Positions 4,201-19,200 of a DNA stretch of 30,889 nucleotides are shown here, piece by piece. Position 1 is the stretch's first letter. The number at the start of each line of letters is the position of its first letter. A model generated the notes under the pieces. That model was not told the origin of the DNA. It searched no databases and saw only the letters and a list, made by a program, of their open reading frames with translations. The position numbers and the translations under genes were made by a program. The DNA comes from Ectocarpus siliculosus. Taxonomy: Eukaryota; Sar; Phaeophyceae; Ectocarpales; Ectocarpaceae. The stretch lies in contig FN648398.1 of the NCBI GenBank assembly GCA_000310025.1, forward strand, positions 927,799-958,687. Direction: 5' to 3'.

Positions 4201-7200
4201 GCGTACAAACTTGTAGCAACGACCAACACATGCGACAGCGAGCGACTGTTTATTTCGTTCTATTAACGAGAATGAAATACCTTAGGTTACGGAGGAGGGG
4301 GGGGGAAGTCCGCCACCGAGGCCAAAGGTGGCACGCACAATCACTTACCGCTCCGAGGCGGAAAAAGAAAGACAGAAACCGAATCACACCGCACCTGAAG
4401 TTCGCCGTCTTTGCCGCCGGGTTCTTTTAAGGCCTCCAGGCCTTCCGGGGGAATGGACCCCTCAACCGTAACCCAGGGGTGACTGATCGCGGCCTTGAGG
4501 TTTTTTGGATGCTCCGGGTCTTTTTCCAGCTTCCGTCGTAGGAGGTTTTAGGTAATTGCAAAAGGGGGGGCCCCGTGCGGAGAAGGGGGGGGGGGGGTGA
4601 GGAAGCGGTCCTGGTGATGCAACGCACCACCTAAAACTACACACGGATGACGAAGAAAGAAAACGTCAAAATCGGATACCCGCTTAGTCAGACGAACAAG
4701 CAACAAGGTAGCACCTTCCGCAAGAAGACCGCATGCTGAAGAAACAGACATGACGCCTTTCATCTGTGGATGGAGATGAACTAGTTGCGTTTGGGCAACA
4801 AACAACAAAATTGTCCAAAACCTCTCCTGCCAGTAGAAAACATCAACCTCCTCGCGGTAAAGAAGGGTAGAGTGCACGTGGGTGGTCAACCTTAAAACAC
4901 GTGGGATCGAGGGCTTGCGAGCGACGAAAATGGCTGGGACGTGACGACTTTGGTACCTACCATAGACGACGCGGAAGCCCGTACGTACGTGGTGTGGCTA
5001 TCACCCGGGCAGACAGACGTGTTCTCGTCGTCAAGACTTGGGGCGGCCGACGCATCCCAACACAGCGCCCCAAAGCATTTATCAAACCAACTGACATAAC
5101 CCAGTATCAACCCACCCTAACTGCGTGACACTTCTCCGAAGCCTCATTTGCAAGTAGTCGACTGCATGGCAATTGGAGGCGTACCTGTCGCTCAAAACTC
5201 CTAACAATCACATCCCTCGTCTCGCAAGCTTCGCCCGCAACATTTCGACACTCCGCCGAAGCCTCAAAAGCTCACCCGCAAGTAGCCGACCATGGGGTCG
5301 TAAGCCTCGAGGTTGGTCAAGACCCCGGACGACAGCGTCCTCGTCCCGTTCTTCAAGTCTGGCTCGTCCGCTACCGCCGCGGCCGCCGCTGCCACCAAAC
5401 CACCGCCGCTACCACCGGCTCCCCCATACCCCACGCCCGCGCCGGCCGCGCCACCCCTGACCCTGATGCCGATGCCCCCCGCGCCCTCTAGGGCAGCCAC
5501 CGAAGAGGGAGAGGAGGACGAGGGGGAAGGGAAGGAGAGCTCCCTGTGGGTGACCATGATCTCGAGCTCGGAATGATTGCCCGAGGGGGGCCAGAAGGGC
5601 AAGGTGCCGTAGACCATCTGGTAGAGGGTCACGCCCATCGCCCACACATCGCAGGCCGGGCTGTGTGGTGCGTGTTGTTCGCGTTTTGTTGGGTGGGAGC
5701 ATAGGTAGGGTATCGCGAACGTTAAGTTTAAGAGGGGTGGGAAAGGTTTTGTAAGGAGCGGCGGTAACGTTGGGGGTTGATGCATATGCGCATGGTGTTG
5801 AAATTTCAACGATTACTGCAACACACCGCGGGCAGGGGCGGGTTCAAGTACGGTGATGTGACGGAGCAAACGACAACAACAACGACAACGACAACACCTA
5901 CCTGACCGTCGTTGATGCCCCGAACAGCTCGGGCGGCGTGAAGGCCGGCGTCGAAATCAATTTCCCCTTCATCTTGGAAACTTCCTCGTCCTCCGTCTCC
6001 CCGGACTGGTAGAGCGAAATGAAAAATGACCACCACAAACGGAACACACGGTAAGAACGGACCGAACATGACGGAAATGAACGCGGTATTTGAGGAAGTA
6101 CACCAGAGCCAGACGCAGAGAACCCGACTGGTGCTATGCACCGAACGGAGTAGACCGGCACCAACAGGGCGGAATGGGCTCGCAACAAAGTATCCAAGTC
6201 GGATCGAGGCTAAATTTCGTGTGTCATCGCCACCGTCAGGCAAAGGTCATGTTATAGAGACTTTAGTGTAGGACCCTCCGCCGAGCTAGATGTGCTCCAT
6301 AATCCCATCGTCTAAACTTTCCCGCCAAATGGTTGGTCTCTTATTTCTTCAGCAAACCGTTTTTTAATTCCGGGCCCGTTTCTGTAGATGGGGACAAAAA
6401 ATAAAGGTAAGTGGGTGCCGCGTTGCACAAGATACCATACGGTCCTCTTCGCCATGGAGTTATCGAGCTTTACTACTTGGTCTAGGGGGGGGGGTTATCT
6501 TACGCTTCCTACGGTACACGCAACTTTAACGTGTAACTGTTCCCGGACCTCAAGGTGCTCGGGGGACGCTACCCAAGAGCCTCGAAACAAACACCATCAA
6601 CACGAAAATGCTGGGGAAGATACCGACGCTGTTGTTGTTCCCCGCACTTGCCTGGCTCTGCAGCATGACGGCGGCGCCGAAGTCGGCGATCTTGACAGTC
6701 CCGTCCTTGGCCACGAGCAGGTTTTGGGGCTTGATGTCGCCGTGCACCACTCCGTGCTGGTGGAGGTGGTGGAGGCCACGGATGCAGCCGAGGAACTTGT
6801 CTCGAGCCTCCTCTGTGTCCATGGGCGAAACCACGACGCCCTCGGGGAGAAGCGGGCCATCCGCGACATACTCCTGCAGGGAGAGGCGGAGACAGAGAGA
6901 GAGATACACAGAGAGAGGGAGAGGGAGGGGAAGGACAGAGAAACAAAGAGAAGGAGAAAGAGAGAGATGTGGGTGTGGTTGTGCTTGAAGTGATTTTTTG
7001 CAAGTACTGGGAAAAATTTATGTTTGATGTTTGATTAACGAGGTCGTGTCGTTCCTTATACTCGCTGATACGGTTGTCGCTAGCGTCGACAACGCGCGGG
7101 GGTGGGTGGCAAACGTAAAGACAAGACCGTTCGTACAAGGCTCCTTCTTGTGCCAGGCTGGGCTCGAAAGAAAAGCTGGACTGGGAGAACCCCACCGTCC

Positions 7201-10200
7201 TACCCTCTTTGTCCGGGTGCAGTGTCTCACATCATCGCACCCCTATAAACGCACGCATGACCGCGACTAAACCTACCCCCCACCTACGCAGTATGCCGTG
7301 CCTCCTACGCGCACCTGGATCATGTAGAGCTGCTGCGCCTTGGGGTCATCGATCACTTCCCACAGGGTCACGATGTTCGGGTGCCTCAGCTTCTTCATCA
7401 CCGCCACCTCGCGCCTCAGTGTCTCGGCCAGGTGCTGGTGGCCGCCCTGCCCCTGCCTCGACCGTATGCCGCCGCGCTTCCGCTTGTCCATGACCTTCAT
7501 CGCGTACTCCTGGTCTCAGGATAGCACGCAACGTGTCGATTTCGGTGGCAGAGGATGAGAGGCGTGACGACTAACGCCCAGACTATCCTGTCGCTCGAGT
7601 TTATCAACTCCATTTCTTCCGGTTTCCTCAGTCTCCGTATCTATACCTTTGCTCTCTCAGTCTCAGGTTTCAGCCTATCTCTTCCGGTCTCTTCTGTCTC
7701 TGTGCCGACACCTCTGCCCTCTCAGTCTCAGGTTTCAGTCTCAGTCTCTGCTCTGTCTCTGCCGTTGTTTCCTCTTGTTGTGTCTCTCCCGCTCCTTCTT
7801 GGCCATGTCTACGACGTCGACGACCGAAAGGACTACCACCGCCCTGTGTGTATGTTCCAGTGCCATGGGCGGCACGGCATTTTCGTCACGATGGAACCGT
7901 GTGTGCCCCCCCCATCGCCATCACGATCATGGGCACCTCCCCTTCCCCCCAAAGTAGCAAGGAACGATTGGCGATGTGTCTTGTGGGAACAATGCTCCGT
8001 CCGCTCGAGGATACCTGGTCACGGGTCTATAGAAGCCGAAATCAAATAATTAGACTTAGTCAGCGCTGACTAGTCTAATGGTTTGATTTCGGCTTCTATA
8101 GGTCTTACAACTCAATAAGGCATGGCGAAACATGAGCACGCCCCCCCCCCCCCCCCCCCCTATCGAGGCCTACCCAACACCCACCATGCCGGTTTCCCCG
8201 TCCCGGCAAAGGTGTACCGACCCGTACGAGCCTTTCCCGAGCTCGCAGATGATGCGGTACTTGTTGATGATGATGGTTCCGTTGTTGAGCTTGCGCTTCA
8301 CCACCTTGACGGTCTCGCGGAAGCTCGACCTTCGAAGCGAGTGCGACGACGAGCTCGCGGACTGGCCGCAAGGGGGCGTCAAGCTCCTGGTCGGCGAGGC
8401 CCCCCTTACCTCTGCCGCCGTCCATCTCCCCCTGCCTCCGGGCCTCCCCGTCCCGCTATCGGCGGGGCGGCCCCCGCGACGACCACCGCCGTCTTCGCCG
8501 CCGGGGCTGCGGCTGGACGGACTTACGCTAGATCGGGACCGGATCAGGCGCCTCGGCTGTTTCCCGCGGCCCCGCTGCTGCAAGAGTAGACGGGGAGGGA
8601 GGAGTTAGCTACTGTATTCATCCTCACCCGTGACCGCTTTGCATCCGTCGTTTCCTAGAGTCCGTCCGCCCGGCGAGTGCGTGGTTTCTTCTATTAATAA
8701 AAGTGGCATCAAGACAGCGTCTTTTTTTCGTTTGGAGCTTGCAGGGCCTTCCTTCCGTGTGATCGAGGATGCCAATGTATTCCTTGTTGATGACAAATAC
8801 GTGCCCGTGTTTGCTAAGCAGCCGCTGTCTGTCACTAAGACTCACCATACTCGGGAAAAACGAAGAAAATGCGCGAGCGTCAACACGACTGTCCGGACAG
8901 AGTGGCGGCAGCAACAACTCCCCTTAAAACGATGACGACGACGACAACGACAACGACAACACACCTGCTTTTCCTGCTCCTCCTCCAGCTGCTGAGCTCG
9001 CTGCTCACGGTAGAAGGCCCGCTGGTAGGCCACCTCCTCCAACACCTCCTGGAACCGTTTCTCGTTCATGCAAGACCGGAAGTCTTCCTTGGTGATGCAT
9101 ACACACCGCACCTGCGTTTGTCGGGGGATAAATTAGACAATAAAAAAACGGCGGGGGGGGGGGGTGTACTCATAGTCGTGCATGCCGTAGACGTTAGACC
9201 ATTGACCTCGCATCCCTACAAAGCCGGGACGGAGCACGCCGGGTTCTCACCGGACCAGGCTCTCACATCACCAAGCGCGAAGCGCCGTGGGCTATTCGGC
9301 GAGTCGCATGAAGGGTGCGCTGCATCCTGCTACGGGTGTTCGGCATCTTGTGCTTACTTCCTTGCGTATGGATGACAGCTGCGTATGACTTAGTTTATTT
9401 TCTGGTGCTTTCACTTCCAGAGACAGTTGTAAGCGCTGTGTAACTGCCTCGAGGATGATTGACCATTTTAACGCAACGTGGCGCGATTTCCCCCCCTCGC
9501 GCGGAGTGAGGGTTCTCGACCCCGCACAACATGATCTACTCGACCACCATTGTGATTACCGCAAAAAACAAAAGAGGTAAGAAAAAGACGGTGACCTGGT
9601 TGCCGAGTTCACGAAGTGAATTGGCTTGTTTCACAACGTCGTTGCCAAGCGACGAAAACCCAACCCCGATGGCAAACACCGGGGGGGGGGGGGGGCTTTA
9701 AACTGGAACAAGTGCGGAGGAATCGGGCCATTCGTGAGCCAATAATCGTAGCTCGGGTGACCGGCTAGGTGCTATCCATGCGGCCTTCTACAGGGACCAC
9801 CACTATGCCTTGAACCTGGAATACTACGGTCCATGAGGATCAACACTCCAGGGTTTACCGACAAACATGAACGACGCCACATCAGTCGGTCGGTTCAACG
9901 AACCGCTAACCACACAAATCGCTACATGTAAAAACCCGTCGTTGCAGCCGTGAGAGTAGAAACGCGAATACATGGATTAGGCAAAGGCGACAAGAGCGTC
10001 TCACCTCCTCCGTAGCCCTAACGCTGGCGTTCCGCGGTTCTCCGTAGATGAGGGCCAGTTCTCCGAAGTAGTGTCCCTCGAACATTTGTACGAGGAGTTT
10101 CGTCCGCTCCATGTCGGTCTCGGGGTCCATGGACGTCTCCAACACGTCCACCGTGCCCTTCACGATCATGTAGAAGACATCTCCGTCCTCGCCTTGCCGA

Positions 10201-13200
10201 ACGATGTACTGTTCTCGTCGTCGCCGTCGTTTTTGGCGATGGTGATGGTGATGGTGATGGTGATGATGGTGATGTTGTTGTTGACGACGACGTTGTCGTT
10301 GTGTTCATGGCGGTGTGTTGTGATGAGGCGTTGGAGTCGTTGTTGTCGTTGGTGATGATGATTTATGGAGAGGGTACAAGGATATCGGTGTCATCGTACA
10401 GATAGCAGTACCGGCAACAAACGTTGTTCTTGATGCGGTTGTCGTCGCAAGAGCGCGATGAGGTAACGACAAATAGAAATAGTCCGTGTTCAGTGGCTCC
10501 ACTTTGGTAGTGGAAGCCGCTCTTGGTTGCAATACACCCAAGTAAACCAATCACTTGGTGCCAAATGAAACACACGGATGAATCGCGACGTTCTTTTCGT
10601 GGACCCCGCGGCCAACAGCAGGCGGTGAGAACTGCCGACAAAGCTCCAATCAACGCAGGCAAGTAACTACAGCAGTCGTGGCTCCGATATTAGAGGGTGG
10701 TGTGACAAAGGCCCTGAACCCTCTTATATCGGAGCCCCCTCTTATACCGGAATAAGAGAGTACTCAACTATACTATAGTCGTGACAACCGATTTGGACCC
10801 TCTCATATCGGAGCCCCCTCTCATAAGGCACCCCTTTATATCGGGGCCACGACTGCAACCGAGTCTTCGAACTCATTGCGAAAACAAAATCAGAAACACA
10901 GAAGGTGATGGGCGCGAAAACCGAACACAGGGCGAGGACACCCTCCCGCTGCTCCTATCGAGACGGGGAAGCAAGTAAAAGCAAGCCTTACCTCCAACTC
11001 ACTACTGCACCAAACGTCACAACAAACGCTACCTCCAACTTACCATTGCGATCAACACAACAACAACGACGCCTACAACCAACTCACCATTTTTTTAAAC
11101 ACACCAACAACAAACACAACCACACAGCAGCACGAATATCGCAATACTTAGCACGTACATCTCCCGCGGAAAAGGTCTGGTGCCGCAGCGTCTGCTGTAG
11201 GGCGTGCAGGGAGAGCATCGGTAGGTTCGCCAGAAGTGGAATCTGAAACAAACAGGTTTCCACAAAAAAAAAGTAATGTAAACGTCGGGCAAGGACCCTT
11301 TCGGGGATGAAGCTGGGTGGGTGGGTGGGTGCGTGGGTGGAGGGTATCGAGCAAGCAGCCGCTGTGCCCCCGGCACCTAGGCAACGAAGCCAAACGCGAT
11401 GGTGTCTAGCTCAAACAGTCTCGGAGAAGATGAGGAACCTAGCCCCCACAGTTTCCCAACAAACCCAAGCGACAAGAGTACAGAGTGATGGGTCAAGGGG
11501 AGAGGGATAGGGGGGGGGGGTAGGTTCCAGTTATAAAGTGCAAAAAAAATCGTAATACACTCAATACTTCTATCAAATACGGTGCGTCGCCCGTACGGAT
11601 AGCAGCACGTGCTTACCTCGCCCAAAATTCGCAGATAAATAAGCAAAGACGCAGGGTCATGACCAATCCCAAAGTTCACCAGTTTTTTACCGCGGTATCA
11701 AAAACCGCCGCGTGCCGGGCGGCGGCGGCGGGACTCGCACCTCTTTCATGAGCACGAACATGCGGAACGGCTCCCACACGCTCATGTCGTCGATGTCGAT
11801 GCTGGCCACGTCTACCACGGTCGACGCGGCAACCGTGGTCGCCACCCTTACGCTCTGCGCGGCAGCACGAGCAACGGCAGCATGAGCAGCAGCAGCGAGC
11901 CAAGTTCGCCAAAACAAGGCGCCGGCAGATGGAGACAAGGGTGGGGGCTTTGTATTTGAGCAACGATTCCATGGACTTGAGTAGAGTAATTAGGTCGTGG
12001 TACGCTCGACATCCCTACGAAACCATGGGGGGGGGGGGGTGCAAGTCGAAGTTTCCCCGGACAAGCCGGCGGGGTGGGGGTAATACAAATTTCTTGCCGC
12101 CGCTGAGTTCGGCGCCGTCACCTTCCTCCTGCAAGCGTTAGGCGAGAAACGACCGACCATCGTCGAGAAATGACCGACTACCAGACGCACACAGCGCATG
12201 CACTCTCGATCCCGCTAGGAAGGGACGTTCTCTCGACGAAACACCATCCTCACTCTCGCAAATGCGGCACTCCTGCTGAAAGTCTACATGATCCCTTGCC
12301 CTCCTCCAGTTGTCGTTTTCTTTATACGTTTTCTGGCGACATGTTTGCGCACTACTGTGCCCTCCGAGACCGATGGCTACTATGGGTGGACGATACAGAA
12401 AGCACAGAAGGGCACACAAGACACGCCACAAGCACCCTCTTTGCTGCATCCACACCCTTCACACCACCAAAAAGACTCCAAACCCCGTTTTCGCCCGAAT
12501 CAGGTACTACCACGACAGCGATACCCCCCCCCCTTCAGAGCCCCGTATTCTCGAGGACGCGGAGTCAATGGTCTAACCGTTAGGGCATGCAAAAGAGTAT
12601 GCCCCCCCCACCCCCGTAGTTCACCTCCGCCTGCCTCAGCAGCCCCTTCTCCCCGAAGTACTGCCCCGCGAGCAGCCGGCATCCCCTCCTCGACGCCGCC
12701 GGAGACGCAGACGACCCGGCGATACCGATATCACTACCGCCGCCACCGCGTGGGTCCCCCTTCGGCCCTGTCGTCGCTACGGCAGCACCGGCGGCGGCGG
12801 CGGCGGCAGCAGCAGTAGTAGCGCTGGCGGTGGCAGCAGCAGCAGGGCCGCCGGTAGTAGTAGCGCTGGCGGCGGCGGTAGCAGGAGCAGCAGCAGGGTC
12901 TCCGGTAGCAGCCGTAGTAGCGTCGGCGTCGGCGGCGGCGGCGGTGGCGGGAACCTCGACGGAGCGCTCGACGGCGGGGACTTCTCCGACGGCGAGGAGC
13001 TCCCTGGGGGCCCCGAGGACGACGTAGAAGCGGCGGCAGGTGGTGCCGGCGGCCGCGATCACCTCTCCCTGATATTGTGTCGCCGCCGTTGTTGAGTGAA
13101 CGTGCAACGTGGAGCAAACAAACGAACGAACGTGCCGCGTGATTGATTGCCACCTGGCCTGTTTCGGTGGATGATGGATACGGACGGGTTCGGCTAGATA

Positions 13201-16200
13201 CCGCTGCGAAGCAGAAACAAAAGAGAGATAGATCGAAACATAACTTAGTACACAGAGAGAGAGAGAGGCAGAGACCGAACAAAAGTGGCATTTCGATGCA
13301 AGGGGCAAGCAGACTGAGAGAAAGATAGAGAGGAAGCGAGAGCGAGAAGTAGAGAGAGAGTCAAACAGACAGAGACAGGGACAGAGAGAAGAAGGCAATT
13401 CTCTGCCAGCCCATTCCTAAAAACAAGAAAAGAAAGGCCAACGCTTTCTGGAACCTGTGCGATGGCTAGCTGGGAAATACCAAATAGCTGAAATCGTAGT
13501 ACAGCCTGTCTGTCTCACCCGCTGTGCTCGCTGACGATTTCCATTGCATTTCGAGAAAATCTCCAAGAGCACCGTAAGAGAGAGGCACGAACACCAATCC
13601 GTGTTCGCGCACAACAACAACAACAATAGACAACAAGGTTCTCTACGCAAACCCCAGGCCGGCCGCCACCACTCACCTTCGTGTATCTCGTGATGGTCAT
13701 GGGCTTCATCATCTTGAGCTGGAGCTCCGCCGTGAGCGTGTCGAAGTTGAGGCCCACCACCGCCCCGAGCCCCTTCCGCAGGGCGAGGTTGGCCTGCATG
13801 TACCTAATCCGGGCGGGGTACGCAATTGGACGGGGTCGAACAGGGGTACACATGGCATACTCAGGAGGAAACTGGGCAGGGTCAAACGGGGGGCACAGTG
13901 AATCAATTCCAAGTACCCCGGGATAGGTTGGGGGCAAAACAGGGATGCACTGGGTCGGATCCCATCACCATGCTCTTGGCTGTAGGGTCCGGGTGGAAGG
14001 GGTCACGGTGGGCCGGGCTGGGCGGCACATCAGACGGGGTTGGGTTGAAACATGGCAGCACGGCAGGCGTGAGCAGCCCTCCGTAGCACCCGCTAGGTGC
14101 CAACCGTTGTCTCCGACACGACAGCGCGCACCCGGCACTATGTAGCGGATGTCAAAAAGCTTATCTCTCCGCGCTCGAATAGCAGGGGCACCCGACCCTA
14201 CTGCACCGACACATACCGCTGGCGTTGTATCGAACTGGCGCCACGAGACCGAGAGCGGACACACCCAAGAACAAACACCACTCATTCACCGAAAAACTGC
14301 ATCCCACATCACCTGACAACCATAAAAAAAACGCCTCTGTGTCCAATTCTCTCTCGCTAACCTTTGATCCTTCTTTGGCAATGATCGCATGTGAGGCGGC
14401 AGTGGAGGCAACCGCTCCCTCTGGTGGTGGTGGTGGTGGTGGTGGCGGCGGCGGCGGCTGCCTCCACCGCCCTTGTCACCGTCGTGGCGATGGTGTCTTT
14501 TCTTGCCCGGGGTCACCTCACCCTTCCCAACCACGGGGCCCCCGTCACCGCTATCCAATCCCCCCGCTGTCGCCGTCCCTGGTATCGCCTCCCCCACACT
14601 ACAACTCCTTCCATCATCGTCTAGCTCGCGCGGGACAGAGCTCGAAGAAGAGGAACAAGGGGAGGAAAAGGAGGAGGAGGAGGAGGACGAGGACGAGGAC
14701 GAGGTGTCCCGGAAGAAATCTTCGATCTCGCGCTTGCTGAGGGCACCGATCTTGCTTCCGCCGGGGCTGCTGCTGCGGTTGCCGGTGTTTTCGGCTCTTC
14801 CGCCGCCGCCACCGCCGCTCCCCCCGCCGCCCCCATCGTTCTCCGGATGGAACGACACCCCGTCACTAGACTCCAGGAGAAAGTCGGTAACCTTAAAGCG
14901 AAGGAAAGAAATACGATTCAAACCGCAAGACAAGGGTTGAGTGTATCATCAATCAACTCAAGTTTCGTCGGTGTTTCGTGTCGGTCTTCGATCGTCTTGA
15001 TTTGCGCGCGCGCGCGCGGGGGGGGGGTTAGACGACCAGCTGAGTGTTGCCAGCTTTACTTGTTGTTGTTCGTTGCTGCTGCTGTCATGACTTCAAAAAA
15101 TGCTCCGGCTTCTGCTACCCGGACGCTTCCTGCTCCGTCCTACCGCACAACTCGCATAAAACATTTCGGCCATATATCAAATCGTCACCGGGTGTGCTAG
15201 TTGTGTGGGGTGCGCGATATCATACGTCACCTTTTTCCCTGACCTGAGAGCAGTTTCATATTTTGGGCTCTCACGGCGACCGCTCAAAGTAATACCACCG
15301 GGCGGGAGCGGTATTGTGTTACTGGGGGTGTTATCTTATGTCATGTGGGTGTGTTATCTTGTGTAGTGGTAATCTGCGTTTTTTCCAGCCTGCCGAGAAG
15401 CGACGCGGAACGCTGAGCAAGGTGTCTGCTGCAGCTACAAGAGCAAAAAACAGAAACAACCACGACAATTTCGTCGGCTCGGGCATCATCTCGAAGGGCG
15501 TCTTTCTTTGAATGCGTGTATTTTTTCTGGGAAACACAACGGGAGCACGCGATTTTTCGTCGAAAACGCACCCGCAACAGCAGGATGATGACACTCACGG
15601 CTGGCTGTCGGCCCGACGCGCCCAAGGCAAAGACTCGACGTTGGGAGTGAACATAATCAAAACTATCTAGTCTTCGATTTGGGTTGGGTTGCGTCACGTC
15701 GAGTGTTTTATTTCTCGGTCTATACTGAAGTGATGTGTTTGAACGCTACGCATATATGTGCACTTGTGGCGACCGCATTCGCTCCATGGCGGAAGGTCGG
15801 GCTCGAAAGAGGTTGAAAACGATCGAGGACGACGCTTGCCACGGCCATCAATCGCCGTCACCCCCTGCATTCAATATGTACTTCTTCTTTTCACGCCGCA
15901 CGCATGCCATGGTGAACTCCTAAGTAACACACACAAAAAGCACAGCCCCCCATCCCCCGAGTTGCGACTACGGCATGCGTTTACATGAATTCCCCCCCCC
16001 CCCTCCGCGAAGACCACTTGGAGATATACGGGAAGTTGAAAGAAGGGCTAGGGATGAAGAAGTACTTGGACGGCCCCATGGACTATGCGAAAAAGCTGAA
16101 ATTGCAATTTCGAGTAGGCGATCTGGACTTGCCAGAACGGAGGAAGAGGTATACCAGCCGTAGGAGAGAGGAAGAGGAGGATAGACACACATGTCCATGT

Positions 16201-19200
16201 GGCAAATCGGAGGAGAGTAGACCCCACATAGTTGGGGAGTGTGAGTTGTACAGGAAGGAAAGAGAGGATCTCGAGGAGGAAATGAGACAGAGAGGGTGTG
16301 ACATGGACAAGTTTGGTAAATTAGACAACAGCGAAAAAACGATCGCGATAATTGGGGATAGATGGTGGGCACAAGAGACCCTAGAGGACGGGGAAAAGAT
16401 GTGCAAGAAATTTTTATGGAGTTTGTGGCAGAAACGTAAAGAGCTCCCAAATGTTGGTGGTGTCTCTAGTAGGTGTAGGAACGGTGCTCCGTCTCGAAAG
16501 GGACGCGTGGTCAATGGTCAAATGACTACGGCAAGCAACAAATGAGTACGCCCCCCTCCCCGAATACCTCAAACGGCGCTTCGGGCTTGGTAATGTGCGA
16601 GCCTGGTCCGGTGAGAACCCGGCGTGCTCCGTCCCGGCTTTATAAGGATGCGAGGTCAATGGTCTAAAGACTACGGCATGCACGACTATGAGTACACACA
16701 CCCACACCACCCACCCACCTCGTCGTCGGTCGTGGAGGGGCTACTCCCGAAGGTGATAAGCGAGTTGCCCCCGGGGCTGTCCAGCGACTGCTGGCCGTGC
16801 TCGACGGCGGCCCGAGCTCTCGGGCTATCCCCGGGCGAACCGTGCTCGCCGCCGCTGCCGCCACCGCCACTCCCAACGCCGTGGTATCCGCTGTTCATGT
16901 CGGCCACGTTCAACGGAGAAAGGTCCGGCCGCACCCGTTGTTGTTGTTGCTGCTGCTGCTGCTGGGGTCGAGTGTCGCCGCCGCCGCCGCCGCCGCCACC
17001 GCCACCGGCAGTGGCACCGCCGTTGGCGGGACGTCTATCGCCGTCGTTGTCGGCTGCTGGCCGGGGTAGACACCGCGCAAGGCCGGCGATGTCCCGGATG
17101 TCGAGCATCAGCGACCGGAACTTTCCCAAGAGGGGCGGCGCAATCTCGACCTTTCATAAATTAATTGTTATTTTTGTTTTATAGAAACGGAAGGAGGTAG
17201 GGAATGGGCCGGCGGCGGGGGAGGGTCGTTAGAACAAACGTTACTTCCTCGGGGTTCTTTCTGCGTCAACTCAAGACCTTGCCCTTCCACGCTGCCGCGA
17301 AAAACAATGCGACTCATTGATTGGCTTCGAAGAGGGTCTTCGGGGGGCAAGAAACAACACCCCGGTCGCGCTTTTGAACCGATACATACGAGATCTACTA
17401 CAGTGTATAGTTGTTCGATACCAGAGCAGTGCTACTGAACATTGACTCGGACATGGCCATATGCTAACATTTCCACGACAATCCACCTTAATGGAAGTCA
17501 GCGGTGACTTGTAGTCTAGTGGATATGCTGTGCATCTCAACGGCCATCGATTCAGATCATGGGGAAAACCCGCGCGCGCCGTGTCCACACACGCACACAG
17601 AGCGAAAAATACCCACCGCGAGCCGAAAACACGCATCATGCCATGCGTGGGTGGAGAGCTGTGCAAAAAAAACAACACAGCAGTAGACGTGGAGCTGGGT
17701 CCGACCAAGGGGCATCGTTGTCGTTGTGTCGCTGTTTCGACCGCATTTGGCACTTCGTTTTCATGAGGGTTTGCCCCACGTGAGGTAGGGGCGCGTATGC
17801 ACACGATTTTCAAGTCTTTGTTGGAGCCTTGCCTTTTCAAATCCGCGCCACTACTTTCAACTCTCCCCGCGAACCTGAGACCGATAATCCCCCCCCCCCC
17901 CCCCCGCCTGTGAGGTTGGAGGGTGGATGGGTCGAGGTAGGGGTGGCTCTTGTGGCCTTGGGCTGTACAGAGCAGGGACTTGTTAATGCGGTACATCCTG
18001 TGAGCTTGTGGTCTTCGGTCCTACCGACGCGACCAGCGCTGGAAGAGAGCGGTGTAGCCGCTACCGGCGGTGTCGGGTGACTACCACTACGTGGGGGAGG
18101 GAACCATAAAATAAACGAAACATTTCCTCGGTGCGGATGATGCAATACAAGTATTCAATATTAGTGCGTCCTCCAGCCGCCGCGGCCGGAGGACCTCGCA
18201 TGAAGGATACTGCCCCGCCGGTGCTGAGAGCCCCCTCAATGCCGGGGGGGGGGGGGGGGGGGTACCCTTTTGTTTTGCATGCCTTTACGGTTAGTCCCTT
18301 GACCCCCCGTCCCCCAGGGGGGGGGGGGGGGGTTTCCCCCCAAATTTTCCCCCCCCCCAGGGGGGGGGGGGGGGGGGGGGGCCCCCAAATTCTCTAAAAA
18401 TTTTTCCGCCTTTCCCGGGATTTGGGGGCAAACAAAAAAAAAGAGTTTTGTTTTTGGTTTTTTCCCCCCTTCCAACGGGGTCCCCCCCCCTGGGAAAAAT
18501 TCCCCCAGGTCCCCCCTTTTTCCCAANNNNNNNNNNNNNNNNNNNNNNNNNNNNNNNNNNNNNNNNNNNNNNNNNNNNNNNNNNNNNNNNNNNNNNNNNN
18601 NNNNNNNNNNNNNNNNNNNNNNNNNNGGGGGGGGGGGGCATTCCCCCGAAATCATCGCAGCACCAAGCGGTGGGGTGGGAGGGGCGGTCTCCAGATTCTA
18701 CTACGACTTTTCGCGTCGTCTCGAGGATTCGGGAGCAAACGACAAAAAGCGACTTGTGTTTTGGTACTTTCCCCCATCCAAACGTGTACTCCACCCATGT
18801 AGATAATTCCAGCAATGCCACCAGTTCTGCCAAATGCGAAGCTTTCGATTGGGTATATAGCGATGATATCCTCTGCATCTTTAGAATGATAGACTCGATA
18901 TTTCAGCCTAGAACGGATACTGATACAATAGGAAAATACGAAAATACGACGGTTTCCGACGGGCTAGATGTATCACGATGAGTTTCAAAACTGGAACTCA
19001 TGTTGCAACAATATAGCAAGGGTGTGTTCGGTAAGGTACGGGTACGTTCGGTAAGGTATTCAAAAAGTACCGAAGCGTACCGAGAAATTCGGTAAGGTAT
19101 TGAAAAAGTACCGAAGTATACCGAGAATTTCGGTAAGGTATTGACATAATACCGAAGCATGTACCGGTACTCTCGGTATTTGTCGAGGGTATACCGAGAT

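What the first reader, a model, noticed from the sequence alone, without database searches (positions are those of the whole stretch)
4395..13803. Two cyclic-nucleotide-binding domains fused to a CaMKK/AMPK-kinase-type domain
Seen: CNBD-A, CNBD-B and a kinase domain lie on consecutive exons whose phases all match. The exon 11 to exon 12 junction (CNBD to kinase) is phase 0 on both sides with a strong internal acceptor. Known: CNBD-kinase fusions of the PKG type use an AGC kinase, and CaMKK/GRIK/SAK1 kinases activate AMPK/SnRK1 and are normally controlled by calmodulin or constitutively. Inference: this enzyme would let cAMP or cGMP act directly on energy signalling. I cannot say whether such fusions are already catalogued.
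Basis: partly seen in the sequence, partly recalled or inferred. Interest (0 to 1): 0.88.

Follow-up and report, generated by a model that had tools for sequence, protein, structure and literature searches.

The report
Kinase fused to cyclic-nucleotide sensors
An alga-like genome carries a protein that joins two cyclic-nucleotide sensor domains to a kinase of the type that switches on the cell's energy regulator, and a second gene of the same build elsewhere in the genome indicates that the join is real.

Summary
Observation confirmed; interpretation partly supported. A 13-exon minus-strand model (14891-4341) stays open for 1045 codons. It holds two cyclic-nucleotide-binding domains (CNBD-B 1.3e-24; CNBD-A just below Pfam's cut-off) followed by a protein kinase (1.9e-49).

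The strongest evidence is outside the window: a paralog on another contig (L048). There most of CNBD-B, the linker and the start of the kinase up to its ATP lysine lie on one uninterrupted 429-codon stretch, so in that gene the fusion needs no guessed intron. In the window no in-frame ATG lies between the stop at 8607 and the kinase.

The kinase is CaMKK-type, not PKG/AGC: best solved relatives are human CaMKK2/CaMKK1 (157/138 bits, next 119); AGC placement is rejected in one tree test (AU p=0.009), only disfavoured in another with shorter AGC sequences (p=0.062). The genome also has an AGC-type PKG candidate.

Ligand binding, gating and SnRK1/AMPK as substrate are inferred. CNBD on 'CAMK' kinases was already tabulated in an oomycete (PMC3019232), so I call this a new variant of a known kind. 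The organism was not identified.

The parts
14362..14891 (-). Exon with low-complexity N-terminal region (contains [11 protein letters not shown] and [10 protein letters not shown]); probably not the first exon
   Evidence: open, GT-AG, phase 2 end
13677..13803 (-). CNBD-A, first part
   Evidence: phase 2 in, phase 0 out
12625..13068 (-). CNBD-A core with Ala/Thr-rich insert, up to the FGE of the phosphate-binding cassette
   Evidence: cNMP_binding 26.6 bits for CNBD-A without the insert; donor GTGAAC is weak
11741..11854 (-). CNBD-A, cassette Arg (SVRVATT) and C-terminal part
   Evidence: phase 0; aligns with the paralog's CNBD-A
11159..11242 (-). CNBD-B, first part
   Evidence: phase 0
10005..10208 (-). 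CNBD-B core with cassette [16 protein letters not shown]
   Evidence: Pfam cNMP_binding 1.3e-24 for the spliced protein, residues 427-518
8965..9111 (-). CNBD-B C-terminal part and helix ending ...[10 protein letters not shown]
   Evidence: 52.8% identity over 72 residues to the paralog across the end of CNBD-B
8578..8964 (-). Intron at the CNBD-kinase junction
   Evidence: GTGTGT...CTACTCTTGCAG, phase 0 both sides; unspliced reading meets a stop
8185..8577 (-). Interdomain linker (contains RRSSFRET) and kinase glycine-rich loop GKGSYG
   Evidence: no in-frame ATG before the kinase
7315..7509 (-). Kinase: ATP lysine (AMK), alpha-C Glu, EVIDDP loop
6652..6873 (-). Kinase catalytic loop HGDIKPQN and DFG
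   Evidence: PF00069 58.9 bits for this stretch alone; GC donor
5902..6005 (-). Kinase activation segment, TPAFTPPE
5276..5660 (-). Kinase C-lobe [10 protein letters not shown] with Gly/Ala-rich insert
4341..4529 (-). Kinase C-terminal end (HPWVTVEG) and tail to a stop; could instead splice on after 4395
   Evidence: alignment to the CaMKK2 tail scores only 1.0 bit; exon start uncertain

Best explanation
The gene encodes one polypeptide: a long low-complexity N-terminus, two CNBDs in tandem, a low-complexity linker, and a CaMKK-type Ser/Thr kinase with its ATP lysine, alpha-C Glu, catalytic Asp, Asn and DFG in place. Most likely it works like PKG in layout: the CNBD pair restrains the kinase, and cAMP or cGMP binding (CNBD-B being the better preserved site) releases it through the conserved helix after CNBD-B. 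The released kinase would then phosphorylate activation loops of CAMK-like kinases, SnRK1/AMPK being the first candidate. Shown: domain order, single chain (directly in the paralog's DNA), cassette Glu and Arg, catalytic residues, CaMKK-type kinase. Inferred: ligand binding, direction of control, substrate.
For: Open 13-exon model; Pfam domains; CNBD query best matched in solved structures by multi-CNBD apicomplexan PCR12, PKG and PKA-R chains (113, 97 and 88 bits). Paralog with most of CNBD-B and the start of the kinase on one stop-free stretch, 49% identical over the aligned kinase and 53% over 72 residues at the CNBD-B end. CaMKK2/CaMKK1 are the best solved relatives of both kinases, while AGC kinases of the same genome, as controls, find PKA/PKG. 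Trees. Possible partners in the genome: AMPK-beta domain, cyclase exons, PDE exons.
Against: No RNA evidence. In the first AU test the AGC placement was only disfavoured (p=0.062); the second, with N-lobes added, rejected it (p=0.009). For the paralog the lead of CaMKK over MARK is small (111.9 against 105.7 bits) and an AGC kinase, ROCK1, is among its 60 best (93.8 bits). CNBD-A is weak in the window. The residue after the cassette Arg is N in both CNBD-Bs, neither the A of PKA nor the T/S of PKG (rule recalled), so the ligand cannot be read off. No AMPK-alpha subunit was identified (uninformative). A calmodulin-binding tail was neither searched for nor excluded.
Confidence: 0.68

Rival explanations
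1. Same fused protein, but the CNBDs bind another ligand (such as a nucleoside, as recalled for trypanosomatid PKA) or act only as a scaffold, so the kinase is not a cAMP/cGMP effector.
For: CNBD-A is diverged and its cassette is two residues longer than the PKA form (recalled); the residue after the cassette Arg is V in CNBD-A and N in CNBD-B (sequence), unlike PKA and PKG (recalled).
Against: By my alignment the cassette Glu and Arg are kept in all four CNBDs of the two genes, and the genome has cyclase and PDE domains.
Confidence: 0.22
2. Two adjacent genes: a CNBD protein ending after 8965 and a separate CaMKK starting in or after the intron.
For: The junction in the window is an intron and no RNA was seen.
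Against: The paralog has both on one uninterrupted stretch; no in-frame ATG lies between the stop at 8607 and the kinase; phases fit. A further, unseen exon carrying a start codon is not excluded.
Confidence: 0.05
3. An ordinary PKG with a diverged AGC kinase.
For: Tandem CNBD followed by a kinase is the PKG layout; the first AU test did not reject it at 5%.
Against: CaMKK-type best hits, a two-column EVIDDP insertion shared with CaMKK and absent from the AGC and CIPK/SNF1-like rows, AGC placement rejected in the second test, and an AGC-type PKG candidate elsewhere in the genome.
Confidence: 0.03

Closest known systems
PKG (cGMP-dependent protein kinase, AGC group)
   Same: CNBDs upstream of a Ser/Thr kinase in one chain
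   Different: kinase is CaMKK-type, not AGC; the same genome has a separate AGC-type PKG candidate (L051)
CaMKK1/CaMKK2 and, from recall, plant GRIK/SnAK and yeast SAK1
   Same: catalytic domain and EVxDDP loop; HGD in place of HRD is recalled for GRIK
   Different: two CNBDs upstream; no calmodulin-binding segment recognised (not searched for)
Phytophthora infestans kinases with cNMP-binding domains (PMC3019232: passages and the CAMK section seen)
   Same: CNBD on CAMK-group as well as AGC kinases: 8 proteins in Table 2; the text gives six PKGs with CNBDs
   Different: the text seen does not say which CAMK subfamily carries them or the domain order
Leishmania STE kinase LmjF15.1200 (PMC1266030, passages seen)
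   Different: STE group, with a PAS domain; [quoted passage not shown]

Membership tests
CaMKK family kinase | catalytic domain closest to CaMKK among solved kinases | tested here: met
   CaMKK2 157.4, CaMKK1 137.6, next MARK4 119.1 bits; AU tests p=0.009 and p=0.062 against AGC
CaMKK family kinase | catalytic residues for an active kinase | tested here: met
   Lys, alpha-C Glu, Asp (HGD), Asn, DFG in both paralogs
CaMKK family kinase | C-terminal autoinhibitory and calmodulin-binding segment | not tested
   only a short tail is modelled and its exon is uncertain; no search for such a segment was run
CaMKK family kinase | phosphorylates AMPK/SnRK1 or CaMK activation loop | not testable with these tools
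   needs an assay
PKG | AGC catalytic domain | tested here: not met
   no PKA/PKG among the 60 shown of 2529 hits; (one search was weaker)
PKG | tandem CNBD upstream of the kinase in one chain | tested here: met
   CNBD-A of the window is just under Pfam's cut-off
cyclic-nucleotide-binding domain | phosphate-binding cassette with Glu and Arg | tested here: met
   FGE...R in both CNBDs and, by my alignment, in the paralog; the CNBD-A cassette is two residues longer
cyclic-nucleotide-binding domain | binds cAMP or cGMP | not testable with these tools
   needs a binding assay

The most novel reading that the evidence does not exclude
A second, non-AGC class of cyclic-nucleotide-gated kinase, old enough to exist as two diverged copies, in which cAMP or cGMP acts directly on the kinase that activates SnRK1/AMPK, so that second-messenger and energy signalling meet in one molecule.
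Probability: 0.35. Interest if true: 0.8.

Novelty: new variant of a known kind. Interest (0 to 1): 0.58.

Why it matters
In animals cyclic nucleotides reach CaMKK through other kinases (recalled for PKA; in platelets a cGMP-raising drug increased phosphorylation of CAMKK1/2, PMC5667593, one passage seen). A CNBD built into the same chain would make the link direct. If ligand gating holds, lineages with this protein would have a cyclic-nucleotide effector independent of PKA and PKG, and a test of how CNBD control can be moved onto a different kinase family.

Tried and rejected
Two-gene reading and PKG reading: set aside. Relatives in other species: three scans of IMG/VR gave none; the one scan of the prokaryote genome collection gave 6 loci in records titled bacterial MAGs, at 25-34% identity to the kinase, not pursued. 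No eukaryotic genome collection was available, so the spread of the fusion is unknown. Ten literature searches listed no paper whose title, abstract start or passages that I saw name a CNBD-CaMKK fusion; several listings were capped (for example 20 of 593, 20 of 30), the library lacks most subscription journals, and no supplementary table could be read. The shared linker motif RSSFR is a lead only: the whole-linker alignment is no better than shuffles (444 of 1000 reach it); a shared 5-mer occurs in 15 of 1000 shuffles. Structure prediction of the paralog stretch from a single sequence was useless (pLDDT 34.6). The AdenylateSensor search was uninformative because no control rang. One search was a mistaken query (fragments of two different own kinases joined) with a very strict cut-off; it found nothing and supports nothing.
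Full report
What is there. On the minus strand, thirteen exons between 14891 and 4341 join into a frame of 1045 codons without an internal stop. Ten of the 12 junctions are phase 0 and two are phase 2, so matching phases alone say little. Eleven introns are GT-AG and one is GC-AG. Pfam finds a protein kinase at 1.9e-49 and a cyclic-nucleotide-binding domain at 1.3e-24 (CNBD-B). The upstream CNBD-A is interrupted by an Ala/Thr-rich insert; without the insert it scores 26.6 bits, just below the 27.5 cut-off. Against solved structures the CNBD region is best matched by a multi-CNBD apicomplexan protein (113 bits), apicomplexan PKG (97) and PKA regulatory subunits (88), mainly through CNBD-B. The last exon and the 5' end are uncertain.

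The fusion is supported by a second gene. Searches of the same genome (189 Mb, 492 contigs) with the kinase and with the CNBD family found both next to each other on contig C13 (L048). There most of CNBD-B, the linker and the start of the kinase through the ATP lysine sit on one stop-free stretch of 429 codons, L048 3597-4883, inside an open frame of 491 codons; the first part of CNBD-B is on the exon before. Pfam reports cNMP_binding at 9.7e-12 on that open frame; its kinase match is 20.6 bits, below the cut-off, because only 32 of 263 profile positions are covered, while the kinase joined with its next exons scores 2.2e-47. A CNBD-A is also present upstream (35.2 bits). Identity to the window gene is 49% over the aligned kinase (49% over 108 and 37% over 100 residues in the two segments) and 53% over 72 residues across the end of CNBD-B. 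With inserts shortened, 0 of 1000 shuffles reach the pairwise score of the two CNBD-As or of the two CNBD-Bs; CNBD-A against CNBD-B inside the window gene is marginal (47, shuffle maximum 46). By eye few intron positions of the two models agree, which suggests an old duplication; that is inference.

In the window itself, reading from the CNBD-B exon into the intron meets a stop, and from the stop at 8607 to the kinase there is no in-frame ATG, so a separate kinase gene starting there would need another exon.

The kinase type. Against solved structures the window kinase scores best with human CaMKK2 (157.4 bits) and CaMKK1 (137.6), then MARK4 119.1, STK11/LKB1 110.1 and AMPK-alpha1 101.2; no PKA or PKG is among the 60 shown of 2529 hits. 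The paralog kinase agrees with a smaller margin: CaMKK2 111.9, CaMKK1 107.7, MARK3 105.7, and the AGC kinase ROCK1 at 93.8. Two AGC kinases of the same genome, used as controls, return PKA and PKG instead. In a 12-sequence tree the AGC and CIPK/SNF1-like sequences separate with 97% support from the two fusion kinases, CaMKK1/2 and the C19 gene. With short AGC sequences the AGC placement was only disfavoured (AU p=0.062); with N-lobes added it is rejected (p=0.009). The tree is small, some rows are partial, and it lacks LKB1, plant GRIK and stramenopile relatives. Both fusion kinases keep the residues for catalysis but read HGD instead of HRD and PPE instead of APE; plant GRIK kinases share HGD (recalled).

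Elsewhere in the genome. A PKG candidate lies on C25: three CNBD matches (one of three over the cut-off) and, some 4 kb on, AGC kinase exons; that they are one gene was not tested. Two further CaMKK-like loci, C19 and C26, have no CNBD match near them in the family search at E <= 0.001; the C19 kinase, with canonical HRD, is also closest to CaMKK2, and the C26 locus runs into a stretch of N. AMPK-beta (2 matches, one locus), cyclase (3 matches) and PDE (18 matches in six clusters by my count) domains are present. An AMPK-alpha subunit was not pinned down (uninformative).

How it most likely works. The order CNBD-A, CNBD-B, linker, kinase and the conserved helix after CNBD-B fit PKG-like restraint of the kinase that ligand relieves. 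By my alignment cassette Glu and Arg are present in all four CNBDs. Which nucleotide binds is open. The expected substrates of a CaMKK-type kinase are activation loops of AMPK/SnRK1 or CaMK-like kinases. These steps are inference.

What is known. The P. [quoted passage not shown]). The trypanosomatid kinome paper describes an STE kinase with cNMP domains and says that elsewhere these are restricted to AGC (PMC1266030, passages). Ostreococcus has five AGC kinases with them (PMC4143559, passages). The passages seen of an Ectocarpus gamete paper, a diatom pheromone paper and an AMPK review (PMC3879662, PMC4726125, PMC5805978) do not mention such a fusion. Ten searches listed no description of a CNBD-CaMKK fusion (limits in Tried and rejected). 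So CNBD-bearing non-AGC kinases have precedents; the CaMKK-type version appears undescribed in what I could search.

The organism was not identified.

Noticed in passing
window 14891, 25084, 25705 (minus strand); L048 7077, 9100, 9487 (minus strand): A short recurring motif, hydrophobic-x-x-[FW]-[LF] followed by acidic/Ser residues ([64 protein letters not shown]), occurs 3 times on the coding strand of the window and of the paralog locus, not on their opposite strands, and 3 times in 26 strand-scans of 13 other loci. The pattern was written after seeing examples. It suggests that the window gene may reach upstream to about 25.7 kb and share an N-terminal repeat with its paralog.
   Followed up: partly
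window 8577-8185 and L048 3597-4883: Linkers of both paralogs contain RSSFR followed by ET or ST, in the window as RRSSF, which resembles a PKA/PKG site (recalled); statistically weak.
   Followed up: partly
L051 (C25), L049 (C19), L050 (C26): The genome also has an AGC-type PKG candidate and two CaMKK-like loci without a detected CNBD; the C26 locus runs into a stretch of N.
   Followed up: partly
window 18295-18978: A run of N between low-complexity flanks (seen).
   Followed up: no
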